Source: Spinacia oleracea (taxonomy: Eukaryota > Streptophyta > Magnoliopsida > Caryophyllales > Amaranthaceae). Taken from it: 64,000 nucleotides of DNA. The DNA lies in contig NC_079492.1 of assembly GCF_020520425.1 (NCBI RefSeq), positions 37,389,542-37,453,541 of the forward strand, written 5' to 3'. The notes under the pieces are model-generated. The model had not been told where the DNA came from, searched no databases, and worked only from the letters and a program-made list of their open reading frames with translations. Within the stretch, counting starts at the first letter, position 1, and every line of letters begins with the position of its first letter. The position numbers and the translations under genes are program-made. Below, piece after piece: positions 4,466 to 56,711 of the stretch.

Positions 4466-7400
4466 TCAAAGCCATTCTCCAAAATGCTTGATTCCCATAA
4501 CTGCAGTGTGTGAGTTGTGCTTCTCTTGCGGCAGAGGTTTAGTTAATGGATCTGAGATATTGTCGTCAGTTCCAATATATCTTGCTTATCTCGACTTCTT
4601 TTCATTCAACGAACTCTCGTAGAAGGTGAAATATACGAAGTACATGCTTGACTCTCTGGTGATGTCTAGGCTCCTTTGCCTGTGGAATAGCTCCATTATT
4701 GTCACAATATAGAGCTATTGGTCCTTTAATGGAGGGGACTACACCAAGTTCACCTATGAACTTCCTTAGCCAAATAGCTTCCTTTGCTGCTTCATGTGCA
4801 GCAATGTACTCCGCTTCAGTTGTAGAATCCGCAATGGTGCCCTGTTTATCACTTTTCCAGCTTACTGCACCTTCATTAAGGCAGAAGACAAACCCAGACT
4901 GTGATCTGAAATCATCTTTGTCGGTTTGGAAACTTGCGTCGGTATATCCTTTAACAATTAATTCATCATCTCCACCATAGACCAGGAAATCATCTTTGTG
5001 CCTTTTCAGGTACTTCAGAATGTTCTTGGCGGCAGTCCAATGCGCCTCTCCTTGGTCTGACTGGTATCTGCTCGTAGCACTAAGTGCATGCGCAACATCC
5101 GGGCGTGTACATATCATAGCATACATGATTGAACCAATCAATGATGCATATGGAATCCCACTCATTCGTCTAAGCTCATCCAGTGTTTTTGGGCACTGAG
5201 TCATGCTTAGAGTCATTCCATGAGACATGGGTAGGTAGCCTCGCTTGGAGTCTGCCATCTTGAACCTTTCAAGCACCTTATGGATATAAGTGCTTTGACT
5301 AAGTCCAATCATCCTTTTAGATCTATCTGTGTAGACCTTGATGCCCGGTATGTACTGTGCTTCTCGTAGATCCTTCATCGAAAAACATTTCCCAAGCCAA
5401 ATCTTGACAGAGTTCAACATAGGAATGTCATTTCCGATAAGTAATATGTCGTCGACATATAATACTAGAAAATCATTTTTGCTCCCACTGACCTTCTTGT
5501 ATACACAAGATTCGTCTGCGTTTTTGACGAAGCCAAAGTCACTGACTGCTTCATCAAAACGTATATTCCAGCTCCTTGATGCTTGCTTCAATCCGTAAAT
5601 GGATTTCTTAAGCTTGCATACCTTTTTAGCATTCTTTGGATCCTCAAAACCCTCAGGTTTTTTGAAGGAAATAATGCCCTTGGTCCAAGTATGCATTCAA
5701 TGTTAAGTCTAATAAATGCGGTTTAGTATTAATTAACAAGTTAATAATTCAGTGAGATCAAGTGAGCTGAATGCCTAGCTAGAGGCCGCTTCAGTTCAAG
5801 TGGAATTAATGATATTAATCCACAACTTACTCTTGAATGAACCCGTAGGGTCACACAAATAGTACGTAAACGGATCAAGTATTTAATGGCATTAAATGCT
5901 CTATCTATGGATATTCGGAATCGACGGATCTTGGTTTCAGTGGGAGCTGAGATCGTCACAAGCAAGAAATGAATACTCCGGAAACAATGATATTCCCGGA
6001 AACGGAAATATGGATCATATCGGAAATATAAATTTTATCCAAGTCGTAGATGTTGCCGGAAACCGAAACATGGTACGTATCGGAAAATATTATCGGAAAT
6101 GGAAATATTGCCGGAATCGGAAATATTGTCAGAATCCGAAATATTATCGGAATCGGAAAATAATTCCGGAAACGGAAATATTAAATATTTGTTCGAAACG
6201 GAAATATTAAATATTGTTCGTATCGGAAATGAATTCCGAAACCGGGAATTTTATCGGAAGCGTATCGTACGAATAAGAATCGAGCGAGGCCTGCCGGACG
6301 AAGGCCCAACACGAAGGCAGGCCATCGCCCAGCAAGCAATGGCGCGCCACAACACAGCCCAAGGCTGCGGCAGGCCTACCGCAAGGCAGGCCCATCGCGT
6401 AGCTAAGGCCATGGCAGCCTCGTGGGCTTCGGTAGCTCGCATGGGCTTCGTGGGCGTGTGGGCTGTGCGCGGGCATGGCCTGCATGCTTGCGGGTCATGC
6501 TCGTGTGTGTGTTTGTGTCCATGCATAATTCCTAAAACTATTAGGATTTGATGTATGATTAAATTCCTATTCCTATTAGGATTAATTAATTAATTAATTA
6601 GAGTCCTTGTAGGATTCTAAGTTTAATTAAATCGTATCCTACTAGGATTCAAATTCCCTTTGCAAACCTCTATAAATAAGGGCCTAGGGTCATAATTTAT
6701 GGGTATGATTGAAGTATTCAAAGGGTAAGTTTTTGAAAGAAAATTCAGCCACTCTCTTGCACTAATAGCCGAAAATTCCTAAGCACCTTAAGGGCGATTC
6801 TAGTTGGTCAATCTTGAGGCGGATCCGGACGTACTGTGGACTATCTACGGAGGGACGACACTTGGAGTCCTAAAGACTTGTTCTTGTTCGGTTCGGGCGC
6901 AGCTAGGGAAGGCACGCTACAAAGTGTATGCATCTATACTATGCTAAATGATTATGTGTAAATAATATGCTTTCCTGGCTTTATGATTTTTCCGCATGAT
7001 TTATTTATTGTCATATGTATCATAACCTAACAGTTGTGTCATAAACACAATTTCCGTTAAAACGCCGTTTAAGAAAACGGTTTTGACATCCATCTGCCAT
7101 ATTTCGTAAACGTAATATGCAGCGATTGCTAACATTATCCGAATAGACTTTAGCATTGCAACTAGTGAAAAGGTTTAATCGTAATCCACACTGTGGACTT
7201 GCCTGTAACCTTTTGCAACCAATCTAGCTTTGAAAACTTCTAGTTTCCCACCATTGTCCTTTTTCAGTTTGAAAACCCATTTGCTTCTTATGGCTTGGTA
7301 GCCATCTGGCAAATCGACCAAATCCCAAACTTGGTTTTCAGACATGGAGTCTAATTCAGATTGCATGGCTTCTTACCATTTGTTGGAGCTAGGGCTCGTC

Positions 7401-9704
7401 ATAGCTTGTTTGTAAGTCGCAGGTTCATCGCTTTCCAGCAATAGAACTTAATGGCTCTCGTTCGTCAAAATACCTAAGTATCTTTCTGGTTGAGACCTAT
7501 ATCTCTGCGATCTACGCGGGGTTACATTTCTAGTTGGTTCTTGATTCCCACCAGATACTTCTAAAGATGTCTGAGTTTCAACCTGAATGTCATCTTGAGC
7601 ATTCTCTAGAGTTTGTTGTTCGACTCGAATTTCTTCGAGGTCTACTTTTCCCCCACTTGATTTTGGAAATGTGATCTCTTTCCAAAAAGATACCATCTCG
7701 AGCAACAAACACCTTGTTCTCAGATGTATTGTAGAAGTAATACCCCTTTGTTTCCTTTGGGTAGCCCACAAGGATACATTTGTCAGATTTCGGTTGAAGT
7801 TTGCCAGAAATTAATCGTTTGACGTATACTTCACAACCCCAAATATTAAGAAAAGACACATTTGGAGGCTTTCCAAACCATAACTCATATGGAGTCTTTT
7901 CGACAGCTTTAGACAGAGCTCTTTTTAGTGAGTGCAGCTGTGTTTAGTGCATGTCCCCAAAATTCTATTGGAAGTTCGGCCTGACCCATCATTGCGAACC
8001 ATGTCTAGCAAGGTCTTGTTCCTCCGTTCCGACACACCGTTCCATTGTGGTGTTCCAGGAGGAGTCAATTCTGATAGAATTCCACATTCTTTCAGATGGT
8101 CATCAAATTCATAGCTCAGATATTCACCGCCTCTATGAGACCGCAGTGCCTTAATCTTCTTGCCTAATTGATTCTCTACTTCACTCTGAAATTCCTTGAA
8201 TTTGTCAAAGGATTCAGACTTATGCTTCATTAGGTAGACATAACCATATCTACTGAAGTCATTAGTGAAAGTGTTAAAGTAGCTGAAACCACCTCTAGCA
8301 TTTGAACTCATTGGTCCACATACATCTGTATGGATTAAACCCAATAGTTCAGTTGCTCTTTCTCCAACTTTAGAGAAAGGTTGCTTTGTCATTTTGCCAA
8401 GTAAGCATGATTCTCATTTACCATAATCCTCTAAGTCAAATGGTTCTAGAATTCCTTCCTTTTGAAGTCTTTCTATGCGTTTCATGTTACTTTGGCCTAA
8501 TCGACAATGCCACAGATAGGTGAGATCTGAATCATTCTTTTTGGCCTTTTTGGTATTTATGTTATAAACTTGTTTGTCGTGATCTAGTAAATAAAGTCCA
8601 TTAACTAATCTAGCAGATCCATAAAACATCTCTTTAAAATAAAACAAGCAACTATTGTCTTTTATTAAAAAGGTAAATCCCTTAGCATCTAAGCAAGAAA
8701 CAGAAATGATGTTTTTAGTAAGACTTGGAACATGGAAACACTCTTCCAAATCCAAAACTAGCACAGAGGGCAACGCCAAAAAATAAGTTCCTACAGCTAA
8801 TGCAGCAATCCTTGCTTCATTTCCCACTTGTAGGTCGACTTCACCCTTGCTTAACCTTCTACTTCTTCTTAGTCCCTATGAATTGGAACATAAGTGTGAG
8901 ACACAACCTGTATCTAATACCCAAGAAGTTGAATTTGCAAGTATACAGTCTATAACGAAAATACCTGAAGATGGAACGACCGTTCCGTTCAGACTTGGTG
9001 CCGCCAGTTTGCTTAGTTGGGCTGGCCTTCTTGCCACCTTTCTTAGCATTCCTCTTCTTACCAGATTTCTTGAACTTGCCCCCACGCACCATAAGAACAT
9101 CTTGCTTATCACTTTGAGCGTCTTTGCAGCGGTCTTCAGCATACCGTGAAGCTTAATTAGTGAGCGTTTTGTCCAGACTATTCATACTGTAGTTCACCTT
9201 GAACTGATCATACCCGCTCTGTAGAGAATGGAGGATGCTGGCTACAGCCATTTCCTGAGAGAACTGCTGATCCAGCCGACTCATATTCTCATTTAATCCA
9301 ATCATCTTGAGAACATGTGGACTAACGGGCCCGCCCTTCTTGAGCTTGGTGTCAAGAATTTGCCTATGAGTCTCCAATCTTTCGACTCGAGCCAGATCTT
9401 GGAACATGTTCTTTAACTCACTGATGATCGTGAAAGCATCTGAGTTGATGAACGTTTTATGTAGATCTGCACTTATGGTTGCAAGCATTAGACATTTTAC
9501 ATCGTTGTTGGCATCAATCCAACGATTGAAGGCTGCCTGAGTGACCCCTTCCCCCGCGGCTTCTGGCATCGCCTCTTCCAGGACATACTCCTTTTCTTCC
9601 ATAAGAACTATTTGCATGTTCCTTTGTCAGTCAAGGAAGTTTTTCCCGCTCAACTTCTCCTTTTCGAGAATTGAACGGATGTTGAATGAATAGTTGTTTG
9701 CCAT
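4466..9704 (-). pseudogene. Gag-pol polyprotein of element A, multiply disrupted
   Basis: Gag (UBN2-type) starts at ATG 9702-9704. It is followed by protease (LDTGC still visible near 8907), integrase, reverse transcriptase (YVDD box near 5450) and RNase H (TEAEYIA near 4800). Damage seen by comparison with element B: a stop at 9627-9629; a deletion of roughly 140 bp near 8990 that removes the zinc-knuckle stretch; a stop at 8414-8416; His in place of the Asp of the integrase RGGEY block (codon 8135-8137); a stop at 7175-7177; a stop at 4602-4604; and a solo LTR inserted at 5663-7032. The frame was read through to TGA at 4466. The element cannot encode its own enzymes; any mobility would need help in trans. 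Confidence 0.88.
5663..7032 (+). mobile_element. Solo copia LTR inserted in opposite orientation
   Basis: A complete LTR of the same copia family (TGAAGG...CCTAACA) lies on the plus strand inside the reverse-transcriptase region of element A, which is on the minus strand. No internal region follows, so it is a solo LTR, normally the product of recombination between two LTRs. The flanks are GTTTTT on the left and GTTGT on the right, a decayed 5-bp target duplication; element A resumes in register at 7033. A plus-strand TATAAATA box is at 6671-6678. The Cys-free GC-rich cassette (6285-6520) and the CCGGAATCGGAAAT minisatellite (about 5975-6250) match the other LTRs in position but not in detail. 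Confidence 0.85.
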
Positions 9705-17285: not shown

Positions 17286-20200
17286 TCAAAGCCATTCTCC
17301 AATATGTTTGATTCCCATAGCTGTAGTGTGCGAGTTGTGCTTCGCCTGCGGCAGAGGTTTAGTTAATGGATCTAAGATGTTGTCGTCAGTTCCAATCTTG
17401 CTTATCTCGACTTCTTTTCTTTCAACGAACTCTCGTAGAAGGTGAAATCTACGAAGTACATGCTTGACTCTCTGGTGGTGTCTAGGCTCCTTTGCCTGTG
17501 CAATAGCTCCGTTATTATCACAATATAGAGCTATTGGTCCTTTAATGGAGGGGACTACACCAAGTTCATCTATGAACTTCCTTAGCCAAATAGCTTCCTT
17601 TGCTGCTTCATGTACAGCAATGTACTCCGCTTCAGTTGTAGAATCCGCAATGGTGCTTTGCTTAGCACTTTTCCAGCTTACTGCACCTCCGTTGAGGCAG
17701 AAGACAAACCCAGACTGTGATCTGAAATCATCTTTGTCGGTTTGGAAACTTGCGTCTGTATAACCTTTGACAATTAATACATCATCTCCACCATAGACCA
17801 GAAAATCATCTTTTTGTGCCTTTTTAGGTACTTCAGAATATTCTCGGCAGCAGTCCAATGTGCCTCTCCTGGGTCTAACTGGTATCCGCTCGTAGCACTG
17901 AGTGCGTACGCAACATCCGGGCGTGTACATATCATAGAATACATTATTGAACCAATCAATGATGCATGTGGAATCCCACTCATTCGTCTACGCTCATCTA
18001 GTGTTTTTGGGCACCGAGTCTTACTTAGAATCATTCCATGAGACATGGGTAGGTAGACTCTCTTGGAGTCTACCATATTGAACCTTTCAACCTTATTGAT
18101 ATAAGTGCTTTGACTGAGTGCAATCATCTTCTTAGATCTATCTCTGTAAATCTTGATGCCTAGTATATACTGTGCTTCTCCTAGATCCTCCATCGAAAAA
18201 CATTTCCCAAGCCAAATCTTGACTGAGTTCAACATAGGAAGGTCATTTCCGATAAGTAATATGTCGTCGACATATAATACTAGAAAAGAAATTTTGCTCC
18301 CACTGACCTTCTTGTATACACAAGATTCGGCTGCGTTCTTGATGAAACCAAAGTCACTGACTACTTCATCAAAACGTATATTCCACCTCCTTGATGCTTG
18401 CTTCAATCCGTAGATTGATTTCTTAATATTGCATACCTTTTTAGCATTCTTTGGATCCTCAAAACCCTCAGGCTATGTCATAAACACAGTTTCTATTAAA
18501 ACGCCGTTTAAGAAAGCGATTTTGACATCCATCTGCCATATTTCGTAATCGTAATATGTAGCAATTGCTAACATTATCAGAATAGACTTTAGCATTGCAA
18601 CTGGTGAAATGGTTTCATCGTAATCCACACCGTGGACTTGCCTGTAACCTTTTGCAACCAATCTAGCTTTGAAAACTTCTAGTTTCCCATCCTTGTCCTT
18701 TTTCAGTTTAAAAACCCATTTGCTTCCTATGGCTTGGTAGCCAGCTGGAAAATCGACCAAATCCCAAACTTGGTTTTCAGACATGGAGTCTAATTCAGAT
18801 TGCATGGCTTCTTGCCATTGCTTGGAGCTAGAGCTCGTCATAGCTTGTTTTTAAGTCGCAGGTTCATCACTTTCAAGAAATAGAACTTCATAGCTCTCGT
18901 TCGTCAAAATACCTAAGTACCTTTCCGGTTGAGATCTATATCTCTGCGATCTACGCGGGGTTACATTTCTAGATGGTCCTTGATTCTCACCAGATACTTC
19001 TAAAGATCTCTGAGTTTCATCCTGAATGTCATCTTGAGCATTCTCTAGAGTTTGTTGTTCGACTCGAATTTCTTCGAGGTCTACTTTTCTCCCACTTGTC
19101 ATTTTGGAAATGTGATATCTTTCCAAAAAGATACCATCTCGAGCAACAAACACCTTGTTGTATTGTAGAAGTAATACCCCTTTGTTTCCTTTCGATGGCC
19201 CACAAGGATACATTTGTCAGATTTTGGTTGAAGTTTGTCTGAAATTAATCGTTTCACGTATACTTCACAACCCCAAATCTTAAGAAAAGACACTTTTGGA
19301 GGCTTTCCAAACCATAACTCATATGGAGTCTTTTCAACAGCTTTAGGCAGAGCTCTATTTATAGTGAGTGCAGCTGTGTTTATTGCATGTCCCCAAAATT
19401 CTATTGGAAGTTCGGCCTGACCCATCTTGATCTAACCATGTCTAGCAAGGTTCTATTCCTCCGTTCCGACACACCGTTCCATTGAGGTGTTCCAGGAGGA
19501 GTCATTTCTGATAGAATTCCACATTCTTTCAGATGGTCATCAAATTCATAGCTCAGATATTCACCGCCTCTATCAGACCGCAGTGCCTTAATCTTCTTGC
19601 CTAATTGATTCTCTACTTCACTCTGAAATTCCTTGAATTTGTCAAAGGATTCAGACTTATGCTTCATTAGGTAGACATAACCATATCTACATAAGTCATC
19701 AGTGAAAGTGATAAAGTAGCTGAAACCACCTCTAGCATTTGTACTCATTGGTCCACATACATCTATATGGATTAAACCCAATAGTTCAGTTGCTCTTTCT
19801 CCAACTTTAGCGAAAGGTTGCTTTGTCATTTTGCGAAGTAAACATGATTCGCACTTACCATAATCCTCTAAGTCAAATGGTTCTAGAATTCCTTCCTTTT
19901 GAAGTCTTTCTATGCGCTTTATGTTTATTTGGCCTAATTGACAATGCAACAGATAGGTGAGATATGAATCATTCTATTTGGCCTTTTTGGTATTTATGTT
20001 ATAAACTTGTTTGTCGTGATCTAATAAATAATGTCCATTGACTAATCTAGCAGATTCATAAAACATCTCTTTAAAATAAAACGAGCAACTATTGTCTTTT
20101 ATTAAAAAAGGAAAATCCGTTAGCATCTAAGAAAGAAACAGAAATGATGTTTTTTAGTAAGACTTGGAACATGGAAACATTCTTCCAGTTCCAAAACTAG

Positions 20201-21280
20201 CCCAGAGGGCAACGATAAATAATAAGTTCCTACAGCTAATGCAGCAATCCGTGCTCCATTTCCCACTCGTAGGTCGACTTCACCCTTGCTTAACCTTCTA
20301 CTTCTTCTTAATTCCTGCGAATTGGAACATAAGTGTGAGCCACAACATGTATCTAATACCCAAGAAGTTGAATTAGCAAGTATACAGTCTATAACGAAAA
20401 TACCTGAAGATGGAACGACTCTTCCGTTCTTCTGATCTTCCTTAAGATTCAAGCAATCTCTCTTCCAATGCCCCTTTTTCTTGCAGTCAGATAAAGAAAA
20501 TACCTGAGGAATGCTAAGATTCTTGCATTCAGATTCAGAAGTGGGTTGGCTCACCTTCTTCTTTTCAGACTTGGTGCCGCCAGATTGCTTAGTCGGGCTG
20601 GCCTTCTTGCCACCTTTCTTAGTATTCCTCTTCTTGCCAGATTTCTTGAACCTACCCCCACGCACCATAAGCACATCTTGCTTATCACTTTTGATCGTCT
20701 TTTCAGCAGTCTTCAGCATGCCGTGAAGCTCAGTGAGCGTTTTGTCCAGACTATTTATACTGTAGTTCAGCTTGAACTGATCATACCCGCTATGAAGAGA
20801 ATGGAGGATGGTGTCTATAGCCATTTCCTGAGAAAATTGCTGATCCAGCCGACTCATATTCTCAATGAGTCCAATCATTTTGAGAACATGTGGACTTACG
20901 GGCTCGCCTTTCTTAAGCTTGGTCTCAAGAATTTTCCTATGAGTCTCGAATCTTTCGACTCGAGCCAGATCTTGGAACATGTTCTTTAACTCACTGATGA
21001 TCGTGAAAGCATCTGAGTTGATGAACGTTTTCTGTAGATCTGCACTCATGGTTGCAAGCATTAGGCACTTTACATCCTTGTTGGCATCAATCCAACGGTT
21101 GAGGGCTGCCTGAGTGACCCCGTCGCCTGCGGCTTCGGGCATCGCCTCTTCCAAGACATACTCCTTTTCTTCCTGCATAAGAATTATTTGCAAGTTCCTT
21201 TGCCAGTCAAGGAAGTTTTTCCCGTTCAACTTCTCCTTTTCGAGAATTGATCGGATGTTGAGTGAATTGTTGTTTGCCAT
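17286..21280 (-). pseudogene. Gag-pol polyprotein of element B, disrupted
   Basis: Gag starts at ATG 21278-21280 (MANNNSLNIRSILEKEKL) and is open through protease to about 20150. A zinc-knuckle remnant (CKKKGHWKRDC) lacks its first Cys. The protease box has Cys instead of Gly (codon 20345-20347). Integrase keeps the HIDVCGPM, RSDRGGEY and NGVSER blocks (19949-19440). RT keeps YVDD (about 18270) and RNase H keeps TEAEYIA (about 17640). The pol end GEWL with TGA is at 17286. Breaks: frameshift near 20150 in a T run, frameshift near 19430, stop at 18473-18475, and frameshift at about 17810-17830. It is better preserved than element A but not functional. Confidence 0.9.
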
Positions 21281-21610
21281 AATAAAAACTACAATTGAAA
21301 AAGAATAAACAAATAAATAACCAGTGACAGTTCTCTTAATAAACTTAAATTCTAGCATACATGCATAATTTATCATTTATTAAGCATTTTATTCAAGTTA
21401 TGTGTTCCGGCAGGTGTGAATAAAATGATTCCAAGATCCTTAAATCATTGAAGAATTAAGCACATTATGTATTTAGACTCAATTCTAAAATATTTTAGAT
21501 AAGCAAAGCCTTTGCTAATTGTCTAGAAACTACTCTTGGTTGATAGGTACGTCTAAGAACTTATTAGGTAAACCTATCTCATTTGCCACGACATAAAAAG
21601 ACTCCTTACT
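21281..21610 (-). other. Leader of element B, gag-proximal part
   Basis: Matches 9705-10030 of element A and stops at the ACT target site of CACTA E1. The leader resumes at 43109. No coding potential was seen. Confidence 0.7.
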
Positions 21611-31269: not shown

Positions 31270-34200
31270 TCAATCTAACCCACCCTCTCCCTCTACTTCT
31301 ACTGGTAAAGAATCACCTAAATCAAACAAGTCCCTAAGCTTATTCTTAACAACATGCAACCATCCTTTTTGAATCTCATCTTCTATGTAAAAAACTTGTT
31401 TTGCTTGAGATGAGAATATAAATGGATCATCTTGCAACAATCTGCCAGTATGCATCAATTTTGAGAAATTGACACATACGTCGCCATTTGGATATGTTCT
31501 TACACCCCTATGAATGTCTACCCAATCACAACGAAACAATACAACTCTGTAAGCTCCATAGTAATTTAATTCATAGATATCCATCACTTTTCCAAAATAT
31601 GCATCTCCATCTGCTTCAACCATAATTCCAGAATTTTGTGTCAGCAGACGACAATCGCAATCCATGGAAGGGAATTTAAATCCATTGATGATGAATCCTT
31701 TTAATTTTCTACCATAACAATACAAACCACCCGCTAAAGCTTTTCTTAGTTTCTCATCTTTGGTGGTGGCATCTATGCAATGTACCTACGATGATACATA
31801 GTAAAATCAAATACATTGTTTTTAAAAAAAAAACTAAGTATTTATTTCACATTAAAAGAACTTATTTTAAAAGTAACCTTATTTTGCAACCACCCTCCGA
31901 ATTCATTGATGATCCAGTTGCTTTCATCACTCTCCGTGGCGGAACTTTGTGAGTTCATGTGACGCTTCTCCATTAAAAATTCACTTCATGTAAGAAGAAA
32001 TAACTTAGAATGATCTATTTCAACAACATATAATTCATAGGAAAACTAACATAATACTTACTCCATATCCCATTTGATCGCATCAGAGTGAAGTAAAACG
32101 TAGCGATGAGCTTGTTTTAAGCTTTTGTCATCAAGGCGAATGGTGACCTCCTTCCCAACAACTCGGCCACCAATGTTAAACAAGTAATCATTGGAATTTT
32201 AAATCTCATCATCCATCCTCGTAGGTATGTTAAAGATGGTCTTAACACCTTCAAGATATCTCGAACAAAACCTAATTGTCTCCTCTAAAAGGAAGCCTTC
32301 CGCAATAGATCCTTCAGGTTGGGCTTTATTGGTTACATGTGATTTCAAATGGGACAAGTACCTTTCAAATAAAATATTTTTACTTTTAATATAATAAATG
32401 TGAAATATTTAATAAAATAATATAATTAAGACATGGAAGACAATTAACCTTTCAATGGGATACATCCATCTGTATTCCACTGGTCCACCAAGTTTAACCT
32501 CCTCCACTAAGTGAATCAACAAATGGACCATGATTGTGAAAAATGAAGGCGGGAACTCTATTTCCAACTTACAAATAGTTAAAATGATTTCATCTTGAAG
32601 ATCATCTAAATCATCTGGATCAATAGTAGTAGAGCACAACCTCTTGAAAAAAGAAGACAATCCAGCCAACAAGTCAATCACTTTTGTAGTGTTAGAAGCT
32701 CTTAAGGCAACAAGAAGGATATCTTGCATTAGAACATGGTTGTCATGACTTTTGAGGTTAATCAACTTTCTTTGCTTCATATTCACACAACTAGAGAGGT
32801 TGGATCCATATCCATCCGGAACTTTAAGTTTCTGCAGAACATTTAAGAACCTCTCTTTCTCCTCAGTAGACATAGAATAGGAAGCTGGAGGCATGTATTC
32901 ACTTCCATTAGGATTAGTACTAAGCCAAAGGTGAGGCTTTATTCTCCATTTTCAAGAGCTTTTCGATCATCCCTACTATCTCTACTCTTATCCATACTAA
33001 GAAGAGTTCCCAAAATATTCTCAGACACATTTTTCTCCATGTGCATTACATCTAAATTATGCCTTAAAATATTATGCTCCCAATACACCAAATCAAAGAA
33101 TATGCTTCTCTTGGTACCAAAAGCACTTTCATGTTGGACATCATTGTTATCATTATCTCCTCTTTGTCTCTTTTTCTGTGGTGCCTTCGACTTTCCATAA
33201 ACATACTCGACCTTTTCTTGTTCACTCAATATATCAGTCCCGCTAGGACGAGATGGAGCTTTACCCCACTCATTAGTTCCATACTTCTCACAAAATTTGT
33301 CACCCTGAATTCGATATGGGTGATCTGAAGGTAACCATTTTCTATAGCTACAATAACAAATCTTGTTCCCAAATCTATCAGAAGGCGTGGAATCTATGCA
33401 TATAGGACATGCACTGTAACCTTTTGTGCTCAAACCAGGGAGCATTGCATAGCCAGGAAAGTCATTAATAGTCCAAAGCAAAGCCGCGTGCAAATTAAAT
33501 TTCTTTCCTTCAAAAGCATCAAAAGCTTCAACCCCCGTCCACAACAATTTCAATTCATGCACTAATGGCTGCAAATACACATCAATATCATTTCCAAGAC
33601 TTGCTTTTCCAGGAATAAGTGTGGAAAAAATGAAAGAAGATGGTTTCATACATAACCATGGTGGAAGATTATAAGGAATCAACATCACTGGCCACGTACT
33701 ATAAGTGGTGTTCATTAAACGATAAGGATTAAACCCATCACTCGCAAAACCTAATCGAACACTACGAGGGTCGAATGCAAAATCTCTATGACGCTCATCA
33801 AATGCCTTCCATGCTAAGGCATCTGAAGGATGCCTCAAAATCTTCTTATCATCTTCACCCAATCGCTCTGTATCATGCCATCTCATATATTCTGCTGTTT
33901 CTGGTGACATGTAGATTCTTTTTAGCCTCGGGATAAGAGGGAAATATCGCATTACCTTAGCTGGCACACCCTTCTTATGAGTATCCGTACCTGGATCACT
34001 TGTAATGCCACCCTTACCCTTAGTTTTCGCCCACCTCGATGTACCACAAACATGACACTTGTCTTTCTCTAAAAATTCACCCAAATACAACATACAATTA
34101 TTCGGACAAGCATCAATCTTTTCATACCCAAGACCCAAGTCTTTTATCATTTTCTTACTGTAATAAAAGGATGAGGGAAAATCAAGTATTTGGGGAAACG

Positions 34201-35646
34201 CATCTAGAATTAGCTTCAACAGCATGTTGAAAGATTCAATGGACCAATGATTCATACACTTCAAGTGAAACAAGTGTAAAAGAAAAGATAACTTTGAAAA
34301 GTTGGTACACCCTTCATATAATTTCTCCTCAGAAGCTTCAAGTAACTTCTTATACTTCGCCTCTTCCTCTTTCGTAGAATCATCATATTCAGCATCACTT
34401 TCATAGGTCACTGGCTCCTCAATCCACTCATCATCCTCCCGTGTTTCAAAAGTTAGGCAATTGGGAAACGTATTAACACTAAAAGTTTATCTTAATAGTC
34501 CTCCCATATTATCTCGACTAACAAACCCACTTTCATTATTTAGGGATCCTTCACTAGTATTCCCTCCATCACTACCAACCACACGATGAATCATATCCTC
34601 TTTACCGTGAAAGATCCTTTTCTTATACGACTTATAAAACCCCTTAAACAAAGTATGTGCCTCTACTACATTTACCGGGAACCATTTCTCCACCTTACAA
34701 TTCTTACAAGGGCGTCTAATTTTTCCATGGACTAGATCTTCTTTAGCAAACTCAATGAATTGCATACACTACTACAGAAATGTCATTTAATAGCGTTTTT
34801 TTAATAGCGATTTTGCCCTTTCCCCTGTTAAAGATATTAAATACAACATATTATAGCGCTTATAAAATAAGCACTGTCATATCTCTACTTACTATAGCGC
34901 GTCATAATACACCGCTATTAAATCTATTAAAAAATAAAACAAAATAAATCAAAACTTAGAAAAATTAAAATAAAGAAATTGGTTCTCTTTCTTCCGTTTT
35001 CTTCTGCTCCTACCAAACCCTTTCAATTGCGCCTTTTTCTCTACTCTCAACTTCTCAAGACTGCCAACCAAAGCAACGATTTCAATGCTATACAATGCCG
35101 ACAGCGCGAGGTTTCTCTATCTTCCTCTCATTTTGGTATGTTCTTCTTCAATTTTTTTAAAAATTTTACTATGAATTGTGGCTGATGCAGATTACAAAGC
35201 ATATTAGGGATCGAAGAGGATTTCGTCGGGGAATTGAATTGAATGAGTTCCAGAATCACCCTGTATCGGAAATTGTTCTCTTATTTTTCTGGGTCTGTAT
35301 AAATTTGTTGTGATTTAACTGATTTACTACTCACAAAGTCACATTGTCTAGCTGGGTTTGGTTCGAGGGTTTCAAATTTCTGTATTTAGGTTATGGAGTT
35401 GGCTGGAATTGAGGTCTTAAACTCCTTAAGAACTGATATTAATTGGGTATGAGAACACTGTTTATGTGGGATTATCTTTCAAAAAATGTCATCCTTAGAT
35501 CACAATTTGTCAGCTTGTTTGGTGATTTCTAGTAAAATATCAACAAATCAAATATTCTCATGTTTGTATGATCAAGTTGTTATACCTGTTAGAATGATGA
35601 TTAGTATTTGCAAATTGCGAGGGTGTAAAAACACATTGTGATGCAG

Positions 35647-50358: not shown

Positions 50359-50639
50359 CACTAGTGGAAAATGACTCATTTCCATCGCACATTTAAGGTC
50401 ATTTGCGTCGCACATTGCGCGACGCAAAAGGTCGCGACGCAAATGACTCTCATTTGCCACGCACATTAGCTAAATGTGCGTGGCAAATGACTTTTCTGGC
50501 GCCATGCTGAAAAGTCATTTGCCACGCACATTAAGCTAATGTGCGTGGCAAATGACCTTTTGGCGCCAAAAAAAATAAGCCATTTGCGTCGCACATTAAG
50601 CTAATGTGCGACGCAAATGACTTTGAATTTTGTAAAAAA

Positions 50640-50650
50640 AATAGGTTTCA

Positions 50651-50742
<92 letters not shown>

Positions 50743-50753
50743 TGAAACCTATT
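50640..50753. repeat. AT-rich near-perfect palindrome
   Basis: AATAGGTTTCATTTTAA (50640) and its exact complement (ending at 50753) flank an (AT)n run of about 80 bp. The whole can fold into one hairpin. It lies in the left subterminal region of CACTA F. Confidence 0.9.
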
Positions 50754-51600
50754 ATATAGTAAAATGGACAACTCATATTATTAAATAGAACCACATCAAA
50801 TCAGTAAGACTTACAATACAAAAAAGCTTGAAATATCTACAACAATATATTTCATCTAACGGTTTCTCTTGACACCCAACAAAAAAAATAAAAAAAAATT
50901 AGCTGCTGCCCGGAATCCTCTAATGTTTCCCTTGCTTCTAGTGTAGTATCGAGCAACGTCCCAACAATAACTATATCTGTGAGTAAATAGAATGACACAA
51001 TTACAAATAAAGAGTGGATCTTGATATGAAATATCAGCAAATTCAATAGAACAAAGTATAAACACAAAGATGGGAGCTTTTAGGAGCAGATACAACTTAA
51101 CAGACCAGGAAAAAAAACAGCTAAAAGCGGAAATTTTACTCTGTAAGTCTTTTTTGAAATGGGGATTTTGGCATGCTGGAAGTTAAGCGAAGAAAACTGA
51201 TTACTCTAGAAGATCGAGTAGGGAAGGCTCATGAGGATCAACACGGATACTCTGATTCCCAAGTAAATCACAAAAACTCATTTCACAATCATATCAAAAA
51301 GTCTATAAATTGCAAAAACAATCTAAATAATAATCCTAGCATGCACATACAGTCATACAGATCGAACAAAAGACGAAGAAAATAAATTATGGACACCGAG
51401 TCTCGGCTTTTTTATATAGAAGACTTCAAAGGATACTAGCTATTCAACAATTCCTACTGTACAACACGAAAACCTCTTAATCAGCAACTGCATATCTTAT
51501 AAGAAAAGTAGCAGTATACGTATACTGGTGATTAGTCACAGTTTTTACATTCGATCAGTTAATCTAATTAATACGAAACTTGCATGCATATATGATATAC

Positions 51601-51729
51601 CTTTAGCCGAGCAATTGTATAATAGTCCGGGAAGGTCGTTGATGGTGTATGCATCTAATACATTTGGACCACCTCCAGTTTGCAGTGCTTCTGAAATGAC
51701 TGCCTCAGTAATAGCATTCCACCACTCTC
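51601..51729 (-). pseudogene. Captured laccase exon
   Basis: A 129-bp exon (43 codons) between a TTATTGCAG acceptor and a G|GTATAT donor encodes GEWWNAITEAVISEALQTGG and PNVLDAYTINDLPGLLYNCS. Plant laccases have this GEWW...INGxPGxLYNCS block in the second cupredoxin domain. Laccases are secreted multicopper oxidases that polymerise lignin. The frame is open, but no copper-binding His motif is included, and no other laccase exon was recognised. It lies inside CACTA F, same strand as the TPS exons. Confidence 0.7.
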
Positions 51730-52397
51730 CTGCAATAATCCCACATATCATATAATGTTTATTTTCTGAAACATATACAATGAATTGAAGCATAGAATAC
51801 AGTTGTATGATTAGAGGTGGAAGCATGCATTACCAAAGATAAGAGGGACTTCCTTATAGGGTTTAAAAACAGTTCAAATCTAGGTATTAAGCAATATTTA
51901 CAGAACAAAAAGATGAAAATAGATGATGAGTAGGAGGTAAATGCGGTTTAAAAACAATTCAAACCTAGGTATTAAGCCATATATATTTACAATATAAAAT
52001 ATCAAGAATATATACGCCATATGCGCTTGAAGGAAAAACAGAAGCCATAATACAGTTTACCAAAGCAGGGGAGAATCGAAAGAAACTTCCATTGCCAACC
52101 AAATACTGCAGCCATTATTAAGAAATAGAAGTATGAAGTCTAAACGTAAACAATTAATACCATCGTCTATAAGATTTGAATTTTTCATAACAAATTTTTA
52201 TCTACAAATCCTCAAACTTGTTCATCATCACAAAATCACGAGGTGAATTGGACAAAATCATAGCGAACAAAAACGGTACGCCTGAAAATCTGTAAGAGTT
52301 TATGGGACTACAACCAACACAACAGCATTCAAACCGACAAATAGAATTGCACAAAAAGGAACTGAGCTACGATAAAAGATTTCGATTTCGATTTTAC

Positions 52398-52699
52398 CTT
52401 CTCCAGAAAATGACCGATGCATAACACATAATCAATTGGTGATTTCAATGGTTTACTGTGCACTATTTCCCCTAATATGCGATCAATAGCAGAACCCTGC
52501 ATTCAAAACCCCGAATTTGACAGAACAAATAACTATGTAAAACACTTTCCCCAAAATGAATACTATCAATAAACCAATTATGAATTGCATTTGAAAAATC
52601 CTACCTTTGTAACACCTACTGGTCGAACCTCAACAGACCTACTACCTTGCACAACTTCAACGGATGAGTCCCTTGCTTGCAATCTTCCAAACTCAAAAT
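52398..52699 (-). pseudogene. Captured trehalose-6-phosphate synthase exons
   Basis: Exon 52699-52605 encodes FGRLQARDSSVEVVQGSRSV and EVRPVGVTK. After a 108-bp intron, exon 52496-52398 encodes GSAIDRILGEIVHSKP and SPIDYVLCIGHFLEK. These are the C-terminal phosphatase-like domain of plant TPS proteins, closest in memory to class I TPS1 (VEVRxVGVTKGxAIDRIL, YVLCIGHFLGKDED). Full TPS makes trehalose 6-phosphate from UDP-glucose and glucose 6-phosphate. Both splice junctions are canonical and the frame is kept, so capture was from genomic DNA. Catalytic regions are absent. It lies inside CACTA F. Confidence 0.72.
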
Positions 52700-53573
52700 C
52701 TGCAGAAGAAACATATCCGAAGCAAGCAATGAGTTAAAATGACAGGAAAACTACCTAGGACAAGAAACATAGCAGCATATTGGTATTAAGGAGTAAATAA
52801 ATGACGTGAAACTAAGTAGGCCAAGATATATATCAGCATACTTATAATTCCATACAAGGGAAGTATCACGAAGCTCAATAGTCGAACGAGGAGTTCTTTC
52901 TTTAAAATACTAAAAAACATGCTGCAGAAACATGAACCAAACAGTCACAAGTGAATACAAAGACTAAATCATAAATAAACAAACAAACAAATAAAGCAAA
53001 CTTGATAATTCAAGCTAGGCAGCATCTCAGTGGATTTAGTGTAAACTTTCAACCACCTTCTCCCTCGGTCTCCTTCCTCCCTGGTTTTCTTTTACTTTTG
53101 CCATTTTCTTCTCAATTTGTTATTTTCAATCTACTTTGGTTTAGAAAATCAATTATTTTCTATTCTTTGATTTGGCGATAAATTTCTACAATGATTTTAT
53201 CATTTTATTCAACTTTGATGAATTACTCATTAATTTATCACATACTCAAATTAGCAAACTCATTGATACTATCATCAACTAATAATATGATGCACAAAAA
53301 GGAACTGAGATTAATTACCTTGACGCCATTTTTGGCTTGCCCTTCTCTTCTACAGCTGTTATCCCACAGATGTGCTTCATACCGCCACGTCATCTATGCC
53401 TGTTCACAATTTTTAAAAATTAAAAATTTACCATTTACATTTCCAAAATGAAAACAAATTTATTTAAAAAATAAAAATTTACCTCGTAACACCTCTGTAA
53501 ATGGAGGTCCTCTGACCAAAAGTATCAGAAATCTTCTTCCGCCATTGTTGTTGTTGTTGTTCTTGTTGTTATG

Positions 53574-54221
53574 TAGGGATGTCAATGGGGCGGGGCGGAT
53601 GCGGATGTAGGTCCCTCCATCCCCATCCCCACCTAAAATTTTCATCCCCATCCCCGCCCCATCACCCATGGCGGGTACAAAGTTCATCCCCATCCCCGCC
53701 CCAACGGGTGTAAGCTAAAATCCATCCCCGCCCCGCCACCCAACTGGGTATCCATCCCCGTCTTATCCCCGCTTCATACCCGCGCTACTACCCGCCTAAT
53801 TTTTCTTATTTAGCAAACATTTGCCATATATACGGAGTAATCAAAGTTAACTATAGAAAAAAAATACCTTATGACTAAAGTAACTTATATAATCGAAAAA
53901 AATACTCGTCATAACAAAAAAAATCCAAACAAAAAATATAAAAATCTCACCTAAATTTATATTATCACCTAAAGATGCAAATAAATCCAAATTCACCCCA
54001 TCACCCATTGCGGGTATGAAGCGGGGCGAGTGGGGATGGGGCGGGGCGGGCGGGGATGGGGCGGGTTCAACACAAAATCCACACCCGCCCCATCACCCAT
54101 GGCGGGTACGATTTTTATACCCATCCCCGCCCCATCACCCGCCAAACCTACCTCCATCCCCGCCTACTTGGGGCGGATGCGGGGCGGGTCTCCGGCAAAA
54201 CCCGCCCCACTGACATCCCTA
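53574..54221. mobile_element. hAT-type MITE, 648 bp
   Basis: Terminal inverted repeat TAGGGATGTCAATGGGGCGG, matched at the right end by CCGCCCCACTGACATCCCTA. An exact 8-bp duplication TTGTTATG lies at 53566-53573 and 54222-54229, the hAT signature. The interior has long runs of GGCGGGGATGGGG / CCCCATCCCCGCC. There is no transposase. It sits inside CACTA F. Confidence 0.9.
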
Positions 54222-55974
54222 TTGTTATGGATGTTGTTAGCGGTGTAACTCGGGACCAACTCGGTCTAAGTCGACTCAACAGATGCCCCAAACACTAAGC
54301 CCCACTTCCACCGCACCCAAGATGAATCGCCGCCGAGTCATCCACCTCAGAGCCGGAGTTTGCAGAGAACGCGGCTTGAAATCCGGCTGAAGACGTCATC
54401 GCTTTCAGATCTGGGTTTGCCTCATTCGTATTCGCTAAGCTTGAATTTTAAAACAAATTTTAGAGATTGGGATGATTAGGTGAGAGGAGACTTTGAAGGG
54501 AAAGCTCGATTCTGATTCTGAAGGAGAGACAGAGAAACTTTGGAGTTTCAACAATGGAGATCTGGAAAATTTGAGAGAGAAAGAGTTGTACAGGGGAGGC
54601 AGTCCGAATATGAGAGAGAAAGGGAATAGGAGCAGGTAGGTCAAGCGTGACTGCGTCGCACCAAAATAAAAATTAAAAAAGGTAATAATTAATTTTACCT
54701 CCTCTGCGTCGCAGAATTACTAATCTGCGTCGCAGATTAGTAACTTTGCGACGCAAAGGAGGTAATATTTTGCGTCGCATTATTACTAATCTGCGACGCA
54801 CATGACTCTGGGACTATTTTAGAGTCATCTGCGTCGCAGATTAGTAATTCTACGACGCAAATGACTAATTTTAATGCTTAGAAATGTCAATTGCGTCACA
54901 TGTTTAAATGTGCGAGGCAAATGTGGTGATGCAAATGATTGTTTTTCCACTAGTGAAGTCACGTGTTGCATCATTAGCCAACAAGTTCAATGCTTTGGGA
55001 GAAAATAATACCCCACTCCTTCCGTAACAACCAACCTTAGCCGCCCCATTCCCATTTTCTCTCACATCTCTCCTCTCTAGAAACTGAAAAAGATCTTATC
55101 TTTCTCATCTCAAATTGCCTCTACTTGTAATTCATCAAAGTGAAATGTCACCGACTCAAATTGCAACATAGAATGTTATCTGATTTAGAGAAAAGGCTTC
55201 AATGTAGATCTAAACGGCACTGTTATATCTCAAACACAAGGTAACAATCAATTCACATATCTCTTAATTATGTTACTTCGTTCTGTCTCTTTTCGATTTC
55301 GGAATTTTGATGGATTTTCTGGGTTATTATTGCTTATTGTGCTTTTTGGGTTGTATATGAATTGATTTGAGCGTTTCTAAATAATTTTGTGGATTTGACA
55401 ACATTTCCCTTGGTTTAATTGATACTGGGATTGAATGCAGGGATACACTTTTTATAATAAGTTTATTTGTTGGGTGAATTTGCTGGTATTGACTTTTCTA
55501 CTAAGAATTTGCTTAGCTTGGATGCAGTTCATGACCTTAATTGTTTATATTTAATTTGCAATGAAGTTTCTTTAATTTTATATTTCAACTTTGAGCTTCA
55601 ACTTTCCTGCATATAATCTAACTTTCGTCTGCAAATTACACATACAAGTTCTTTTACAATTTCTTTTATCATCTGCAAATGTAATTAAAAAATAGTTTGT
55701 TTCCTTCTGACTGTTGCCGATCAGCTAAAAGGAAAATCAAAAGTGGAGTATTCAATTTAAAGAGAACTCCAAGCAATAAAATAAAATATGTTTACCGGGC
55801 TTTGTTTTTTAATAAGACACCCATTTTTATTACTTTTGTTTCTTGCCTTAAGCATGTTAATTGTAGTGAGGTAGTTTTTAGACAGGCATAAGTCTCTCTT
55901 CTGATTGTAAAATTCTAAAAGTTATCTAATTGTCTGTCGGGCTGAAATCTGAAGCATTTATTTACTTAATGCAG

Positions 55975-56711
55975 GCAGAGGCAGAGGCTAAATTACATGG
56001 AAGCGATGAAACTGGAAATTGAACGCCTCCGCTTAAATCTTTCTACTGCTGAGCGATATAGGGCTCTATTGGCAGTTAGCACAGATCCTGCTTCTATAAA
56101 TCTGAATCTGTTGCTGGATGATCTACAGATGATAAGATTCTGCAGGATCACTAGTCTTGCAATGGTGGGACAAGCAGCTCTTGAAGATAAAATTACTAAA
56201 TCAATTGGCCTTGAGAAAAATGACGATGATGTCATTGATTTCTGGAATGTTTCTGGTTTTAGACAGAGTTGTGTTGGCGGTGTGTGTGAGGTACATGCTG
56301 AAAATGGGGGAGGCGGTGCAAATATCTACCGTGAAATCATCAGCAGATTCCTCAAGGTCTTTGTTGTGTTCTCATTATGGGAGAAACGTTTGTCAAATAT
56401 GTTGTGCTGGAAGGGGAGCATCTCTGCTTGCAAGTTATAGTACAAGGGGTTCTTTAAACTCTAATTGTGGACAAGGCCACAGTGGCTCAAGCCATGGAAG
56501 CCAAGCTGACATCTATACTAATAACAACTATGTCACATCAAATGGGGTCATCTGTAAACAGTGCTGCAGTGATGTTGTGCTGAATGCATTAGTACTGGAT
56601 TATGCCAGGGCCTTGTTAAGCTCCAGAAGAACCACTCATGTTGGTGCTGCTGCTTTTACAGCTTTGGATAAAGTCCTTGAATTTTCCTTGAAACTAGTAA
56701 AAGGTGTATAA
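55975..56711 (+). pseudogene. Captured SAC9-like phosphoinositide phosphatase C-terminus
   Basis: After an AATGCAG acceptor the frame reads YMEAMKLEIERLRLNLSTAE, then LLDDLQMIRFC and DDDVIDFWNVSG. In the next frame it reads CQICCAGRGASLLASY, GVICKQCCSDVVLNALVLDY and a stop at 56709-56711. The series of CxxC pairs with this coiled-coil start matches, from memory, the far C-terminal region of plant SAC9. The frame changes at about 56306-56310 in a run of five G, so the product is broken. The SAC phosphatase domain is absent. It lies in CACTA D on the plus strand. Confidence 0.6.

What the first reader, a model, noticed from the sequence alone, without database searches (positions are those of the whole stretch)
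50359..54955. CACTA element carrying laccase and trehalose-phosphate-synthase exons together
Sequence: a 4.6-kb element with matched termini and AAG duplications holds a 129-bp laccase exon (51601-51729) and two TPS exons (52398-52699), all on the minus strand with intact GT-AG sites. Knowledge: plant CACTA elements can capture gene pieces. Inference: two unrelated genes were acquired by one element in the same orientation, giving a potential chimeric transcript.
Basis: partly seen in the sequence, partly recalled or inferred. Interest (0 to 1): 0.7.

Follow-up and report, generated by a model that had tools for sequence, protein, structure and literature searches.

The report
Jumping gene carrying three gene scraps
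A short plant jumping gene (CACTA type) has picked up pieces of at least three ordinary genes - a laccase, a trehalose-phosphate synthase and an AP2-type regulator - and spread them to several places in the genome; elements of this kind are already known from other plants, and the gene scraps look decayed rather than useful.

Summary
Window 50359-54955 is a CACTA-type element with exact 13-bp ends and an AAG duplication, carrying laccase and TPS exons on the minus strand with GT-AG sites. Donor genes lie in the same genome on C1 and C4. Introns came along, so genomic DNA was captured. Six dispersed copies carry both pieces.

That capture is older: five sister elements share one AP2 piece and lack laccase and TPS; one of them, L049, was shown to hold splicing-factor CWC22 exons instead.

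A laccase-TPS fusion protein is not supported. Splicing TPS to laccase shifts the laccase frame in 6 of 6 copies, and exon changes among copies look neutral (3 silent, 17 replacement, 2 stops). Transcription could not be tested.

This is a Pack-CACTA element with pieces of several genes, like soybean Tgm-Express1: a new member of a known kind, of modest interest.

The parts
50359..54955 (.). Whole non-autonomous CACTA-type element (4,597 bp)
   Evidence: exact 13-bp terminal inverted repeats, AAG TSD; other copies in genome
50356..50358 (.). Target-site duplication AAG, left
54956..54958 (.). Target-site duplication AAG, right
50359..50371 (+). Terminal inverted repeat CACTAGTGGAAAA
54943..54955 (-). 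Terminal inverted repeat CACTAGTGGAAAA
50359..50760 (+). 5' subterminal region: repeated TTTGCGTCGCA motifs, long palindrome and TA repeat
   Evidence: fold z-score -29; largely shared with sister elements
51522..51863 (-). Captured laccase segment (end of one exon, intron, 129-bp exon, start of next intron)
   Evidence: 89-91% to laccase loci L024/L025 on C1
51601..51729 (-). Laccase exon with GT-AG flanks
51834..51863 (-). Partial upstream laccase exon (3' end only)
51892..52351 (.). Backbone block shared with sister elements, between the laccase and TPS pieces
52366..53017 (-). Captured TPS segment (two exons plus introns)
   Evidence: 84% to donor L046 on C4; 89% for copy L020
52398..52496 (-). 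TPS exon b
52605..52699 (-). TPS exon a, with 36-bp deletion private to this copy
53054..53246 (.). 193-bp piece matching C4:40851368 (nature unknown)
   Evidence: 95%
53297..53538 (-). Captured AP2-type gene segment, part 1 (exon 2, intron, end of exon 1)
   Evidence: 90% to donor L062 on C3
54232..54412 (-). Captured AP2-type gene segment, part 2 (exon 1)
   Evidence: 95% to donor L062; also in five sister elements
53574..54221 (.). Nested 648-bp hAT-like insertion, TSD TTGTTATG
   Evidence: 33 further matches listed, a lower bound; named from its ends and TSD, not by a library search

Best explanation
A non-autonomous Pack-TYPE CACTA element (Pack-CACTA). Its ends and subterminal repeats are of the kind that a CACTA transposase supplied in trans would recognise (inferred). 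It carries intron-containing pieces of at least three host genes: an AP2-type transcription factor, trehalose-phosphate synthase (C-terminal part) and laccase (shown). The AP2 piece was taken in first and is shared with sister elements; laccase and TPS came later, as separate captures in one lineage (inferred from shared and private blocks). Capture was at the DNA level, by faulty repair or by re-mobilisation of neighbouring insertions (inferred). The unit was then copied to at least six places, after which the exons drifted without visible selection (shown by sequence). If transcribed at all, it would give a non-coding or scrambled spliced RNA, not a working fusion enzyme (inferred).
For: Exact TIRs, 3-bp TSD and clustered subterminal repeats; TSD ATA in copy L019. 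Six copies with both laccase and TPS: 6 of 9 laccase-exon matches (the other 3 are laccase loci on C1) and 6 of 36 matches to the TPS stretch (1 is the donor, 29 match only the neighbouring backbone). Copies lie 0.4-1.2% from their majority sequence over window 50978-53498. Donors keep introns and domains: laccase L024, TPS L046 with GT20 and TPP domains, AP2-type L062. Five sister elements, L047-L051, share the terminal blocks and the AP2 exon-1 piece but match no captured laccase or TPS stretch; four share the middle block in full and L051 only 43 bases of it. Codon changes among the six copies in the exons: 3 synonymous, 17 replacement, 2 stop; exon variability (2-8% of sites) is like that of non-coding stretches (4-6%) (where two TPS exon limits were one base off).
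Against: No transposase partner with these ends was found (not searched genome-wide), and there are no RNA data. Matched TSDs were seen for 2 of 6 copies (window, L019); L020 sits in a C-run, L018 and L022 have no intact 5' end in what was fetched, and L021 has a candidate 5' end 3 kb upstream whose flank (ATT) differs from its 3' flank (ATG). Between donors and majority form, the TPS exons show 5 silent and 0 replacement codon changes and the laccase exon 1 and 1, which could hint at past constraint; polarised against laccase paralogues, 2 of 129 exon sites and 10 of 213 other sites changed on the element side, too few to decide.
Confidence: 0.93

Rival explanations
1. The element makes a spliced chimeric TPS-laccase (or AP2-TPS-laccase) protein that has a function.
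For: All pieces lie on one strand with intact GT-AG sites in the window copy; TPS exons read open in 5 of 6 copies. Soybean Tgm-Express1 yields spliced chimeric RNAs (PMC1947982, abstract and Background read). Few replacement changes between donors and majority form.
Against: TPS to laccase splicing shifts the laccase frame in 6 of 6 copies, and in the window copy it then meets a stop; copy L021 has a stop in TPS; copy L018 has a stop in its native laccase frame; the AP2 exon-1 frame stops after ...GSGA in 5 of 5 A-type copies that hold that piece; changes among copies look neutral.
Confidence: 0.04
2. The element acts mainly as a source of small RNAs: its hairpin end or antisense reading of the captured exons makes siRNAs that dampen the donor genes.
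For: The first 402 bases of the window copy fold far better than shuffles (-221 kcal/mol, z -29); exon identity to the donors is high (2 of 129 and 5 of 230 bases differ for the majority form).
Against: The hairpin is in the subterminal repeats, not over the gene pieces, so its siRNAs would target the element itself; no small-RNA data.
Confidence: 0.1
3. Native gene(s) at this locus, with the CACTA ends a coincidence.
For: None found.
Against: Six dispersed copies with the same inner arrangement and the same 3' end; donors elsewhere; matching TSD.
Confidence: 0.01

Closest known systems
Pack-CACTA / Pack-TYPE elements (Arabidopsis, rice, maize; PMC8903248, passages read)
   Same: Non-autonomous CACTA ends around genomic pieces of host genes; [quoted passage not shown]
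   Different: Different species, termini and donor genes; here an older shared AP2 capture with later different cassettes is seen by comparing related elements
Tgm-Express1 of soybean (PMC1947982, abstract and Background read)
   Same: CACTA element, 5.7 kb, intronic and exonic pieces of five unrelated genes
   Different: Tgm-Express1 lies in an intron of F3H and is transcribed into spliced chimeras from the host promoter; no transcript is known here
CACTA elements with captured fragments in Chenopodium (PMC8978399, passages and sections 9 and 15 read)
   Same: CACTA elements in plants related to spinach, the likely source (relationship recalled); an 80-bp AP2 fragment was among the captures
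   Different: Those fragments lie upstream of a coding domain of the element, so those elements keep coding sequence; whether the AP2 fragments are related was not tested

Membership tests
CACTA superfamily | Inverted ends beginning CACTA | tested here: met
CACTA superfamily | 3-bp target-site duplication | tested here: met
   AAG in the window copy, ATA in L019; not shown for the other four of six copies
CACTA superfamily | Clustered subterminal repeats | tested here: met
   14 of 16 window matches inside the element, 0.7 expected in the whole window
CACTA superfamily | Mobilised by a CACTA (Transposase_21/En-Spm) transposase | not tested
   A Transposase_21 ORF lies at 32939-34486 in the window, but these ends were not found near it; no genome-wide search for a partner
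Pack-TYPE (Pack-CACTA) | Non-autonomous, carries host-gene pieces instead of transposase | tested here: met
   no ORF of 150 aa or more inside the element
Pack-TYPE (Pack-CACTA) | Donor genes identifiable elsewhere in the genome | tested here: met
   laccase C1, TPS C4, AP2-type C3
Pack-TYPE (Pack-CACTA) | Multiple copies showing mobility | tested here: met
   six copies with both genes; 42 exact family 5' ends
Pack-TYPE (Pack-CACTA) | Observed transposition or transcription | not testable with these tools
   no RNA or resequencing data

The most novel reading that the evidence does not exclude
A modular clan of CACTA elements that repeatedly swaps host-gene cassettes into fixed slots between shared backbone blocks, always in one orientation (laccase, TPS and AP2 here and CWC22 in sister element L049 all read from the same end: 4 of 4, a 1 in 8 chance), because a promoter in one terminus favours elements whose cargo splices cleanly.
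Probability: 0.1. Interest if true: 0.55.

Novelty: new member of a known kind. Interest (0 to 1): 0.3.

Why it matters
It is a clean, young example (copies about 1% from their majority sequence) in which order of capture, donors and intermediates can be read from one genome: AP2 first, then CWC22 in one branch and laccase plus TPS in another. That makes it a useful case for working out how CACTA elements take in and swap gene pieces, and a warning that these exons may be annotated as genes.

Tried and rejected
Fusion protein: tested by reading the splice chain in all six copies; rejected. Selection on captured exons: neutral pattern among copies; the donor-to-majority comparison shows few replacement changes, but the polarised laccase comparison (whose non-exon columns include a few beyond the captured stretch) has too few changes to claim constraint, and the sampled gene may not be the true donor. 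Donor of 50969-51515: none found (15 matches, 8 of them pieces of family copies and 7 short matches of 79-94%); a possible terminal exon reading SIRVDPHEPSLLDLLE* on the minus strand stays unexplained. Transposase partner: only the window ORFs were looked at. The sigma-70 promoter scan is not informative for a plant. PMC6379663 (Pack-CACTA mobilisation) is not held, so its content is known only from passages of PMC8903248 and PMC13317346. Paper searches showed no report of this element in the rows listed: 3 of 3, 20 of 94, 8 of 9 and 8 of 364 papers; the rest were not seen, and subscription journals are largely not covered. The alignment identities of copy L020 (92-93%) are lowered by its unrelated 3' half.
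Full report
The genome. The window is G000:C6:37389542-37453541 of an assembly of 894,210,420 bases in 242 contigs. Contigs C1-C6 are chromosome-sized (115-189 Mb). The published spinach Monoe-Viroflay assembly totals about 894.3 Mb (PMC8668906, passages read), so spinach is the likely source; this is inferred, not tested.

The element. Window 50359-54955 begins and ends with exact inverted 13-mers CACTAGTGGAAAA and is flanked by AAG on both sides. The motif TTTGCGTCGCA and near matches crowd both ends: 14 of 16 matches in the window lie inside the element, with 0.7 expected by chance in the whole window. The first 402 bases fold far better than shuffled sequence (z -29). A 25-bp form of the family's 5' end occurs 42 times exactly in the genome and never in the reversed control; the window copy itself has a variant of it.

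Copies. A DNA search gave five further copies with long matches at 95-96% identity (refetched as L018-L022). Both the laccase exon and the TPS exons are in all six: one search lists 9 laccase-exon matches, 6 in elements and 3 in laccase loci on C1; one search lists 36 matches, 6 in elements, 1 in the TPS donor and 29 to the adjoining backbone only. Over window 50978-53498 the copies lie 0.4-1.2% from their majority sequence. All six keep the 3' end. Copy L019 has a matching TSD (ATA), L020 lies in a run of C, and L018, L021 and L022 lack a clear pair. The 5' portion of L022 continues about 10 kb away, which points to a later insertion. Two partial copies were also seen: L023 holds a 5' part and L063 a 3' part. 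L020 and L063 share a different 3' half.

Laccase. The captured stretch is about 342 bp (51522-51863): about 30 bp of one exon, an intron, the 129-bp exon and the start of the next intron. It is 89-91% identical to laccase loci on C1 (L024, L025). L024 has the multicopper oxidase domains; L025 was not domain-tested. The majority form of the exon differs from the best donor at 2 of 129 bases and scores as laccase.

TPS. The captured stretch is 52366-53017. It is 84% identical to L046 on C4 in the window copy and 89% in copy L020. L046 encodes a glycosyltransferase 20 and a trehalose-phosphatase domain, as a plant TPS does. The two exons encode part of the C-terminal, phosphatase-like domain. 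The window copy alone of six lacks 36 bp in frame.

A third gene. Window 53297-53538 and 54232-54412 match one gene on C3 (L062) at 90% and 95%, in order and on the same strand as the others. Its reading SDTFGQRTSIYRGVTR / [21 protein letters not shown] is AP2-like; Pfam AP2 gives E 4.9e-4 for this short stretch, below its curated cut-off, and the finer name (ANT/AIL type) is recalled. In the window copy the hAT-like insertion lies between the two pieces; four other copies have the site without it, and L020 lacks the site. A further 193 bp (53054-53246) match C4:40851368 at 95%.

History. Five sister elements, L047-L051, taken from the 29 backbone-only matches, have the same 5' end; an exact 3' end was found in L047, L049 and L050, not in L048 or L051. 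They share with the window element a 5' block (117-433 bases), a middle block (about 370-460 bases in L047-L050; 43 bases in L051) and the 3' block; of these 15 blocks 11 are 83-88% identical, the extremes being 75% and 98%. All five carry the AP2 exon-1 piece with the same junction, at donor position 289, and none matches the captured laccase or TPS stretches; L047 matches L025 elsewhere, outside the laccase piece. In L049 the slot where laccase sits here holds exons of splicing factor CWC22 on the same strand (Pfam MA3 E 5.3e-10 and 4.3e-5; best PDB hits named CWC22 E 1.2e-9 and 5.4e-15). Only L049 was tested for this; the other four share most of that DNA. The middle block lies between laccase and TPS, so these two were probably separate captures. 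Hence: AP2 first; then CWC22 in one branch, laccase and TPS in another; then spread of the latter to at least six sites. The order is an inference.

Function. Read in the TPS frame, the splice chain TPS a - TPS b - laccase shifts laccase out of frame in 6 of 6 copies, and in the window copy it stops there. Copy L021 has a stop in TPS, L018 a stop in the native laccase frame. The AP2 exon-1 frame stops after ...GSGA in the window copy, L018, L019, L021 and L022 (5 of 5 that hold the piece) but is open there in the five sister elements. Codon changes among the six copies: 3 silent, 17 replacement, 2 stop. Against this, the donor-to-majority comparison shows only 1 replacement against 6 silent codon changes; a short stem lineage or an unsampled true donor would explain it, and polarising with paralogues leaves too few changes to judge. 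I read the exons as passengers. Transcription, chimeric or not, is open: soybean Tgm-Express1 shows that such elements can be spliced into chimeric RNAs from a host promoter (PMC1947982, abstract and Background read).

Known kind. Pack-CACTA elements with DNA from several loci are reported (PMC8903248, passages read), as are CACTA elements with gene pieces, including AP2, in Chenopodium (PMC8978399, passages and two sections read). This element is a new member of that kind.

Noticed in passing
window 31270-34486 (-): ORFs of a CACTA transposase gene (Transposase_21, DUF4218, DUF4216 in separate ORFs); no CACTAGTGGAAAA ends near it.
   Followed up: partly
window 55970-56711 (+): Stretch resembling the SAC9 C8D domain (Pfam E 1.9e-7 for 56136-56711), seemingly split over two frames, about 1 kb from the element; gene or pseudogene not settled.
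   Followed up: no
window 53574-54221: 648-bp GC-rich hAT-like repeat with 33 further matches of 94-98% identity, a lower bound.
   Followed up: partly
L049 3720-3959 and 4332-4607 (-): CWC22 (MA3) exons captured by a sister CACTA element.
   Followed up: partly
window 51180-51255 (-): Possible terminal exon reading SIRVDPHEPSLLDLLE* in the element; no donor found.
   Followed up: partly
window 4602-9626 and 17286-21376 (-): Two sets of ORFs that look like Ty1-copia retrotransposon polyproteins (read, not tested).
   Followed up: no
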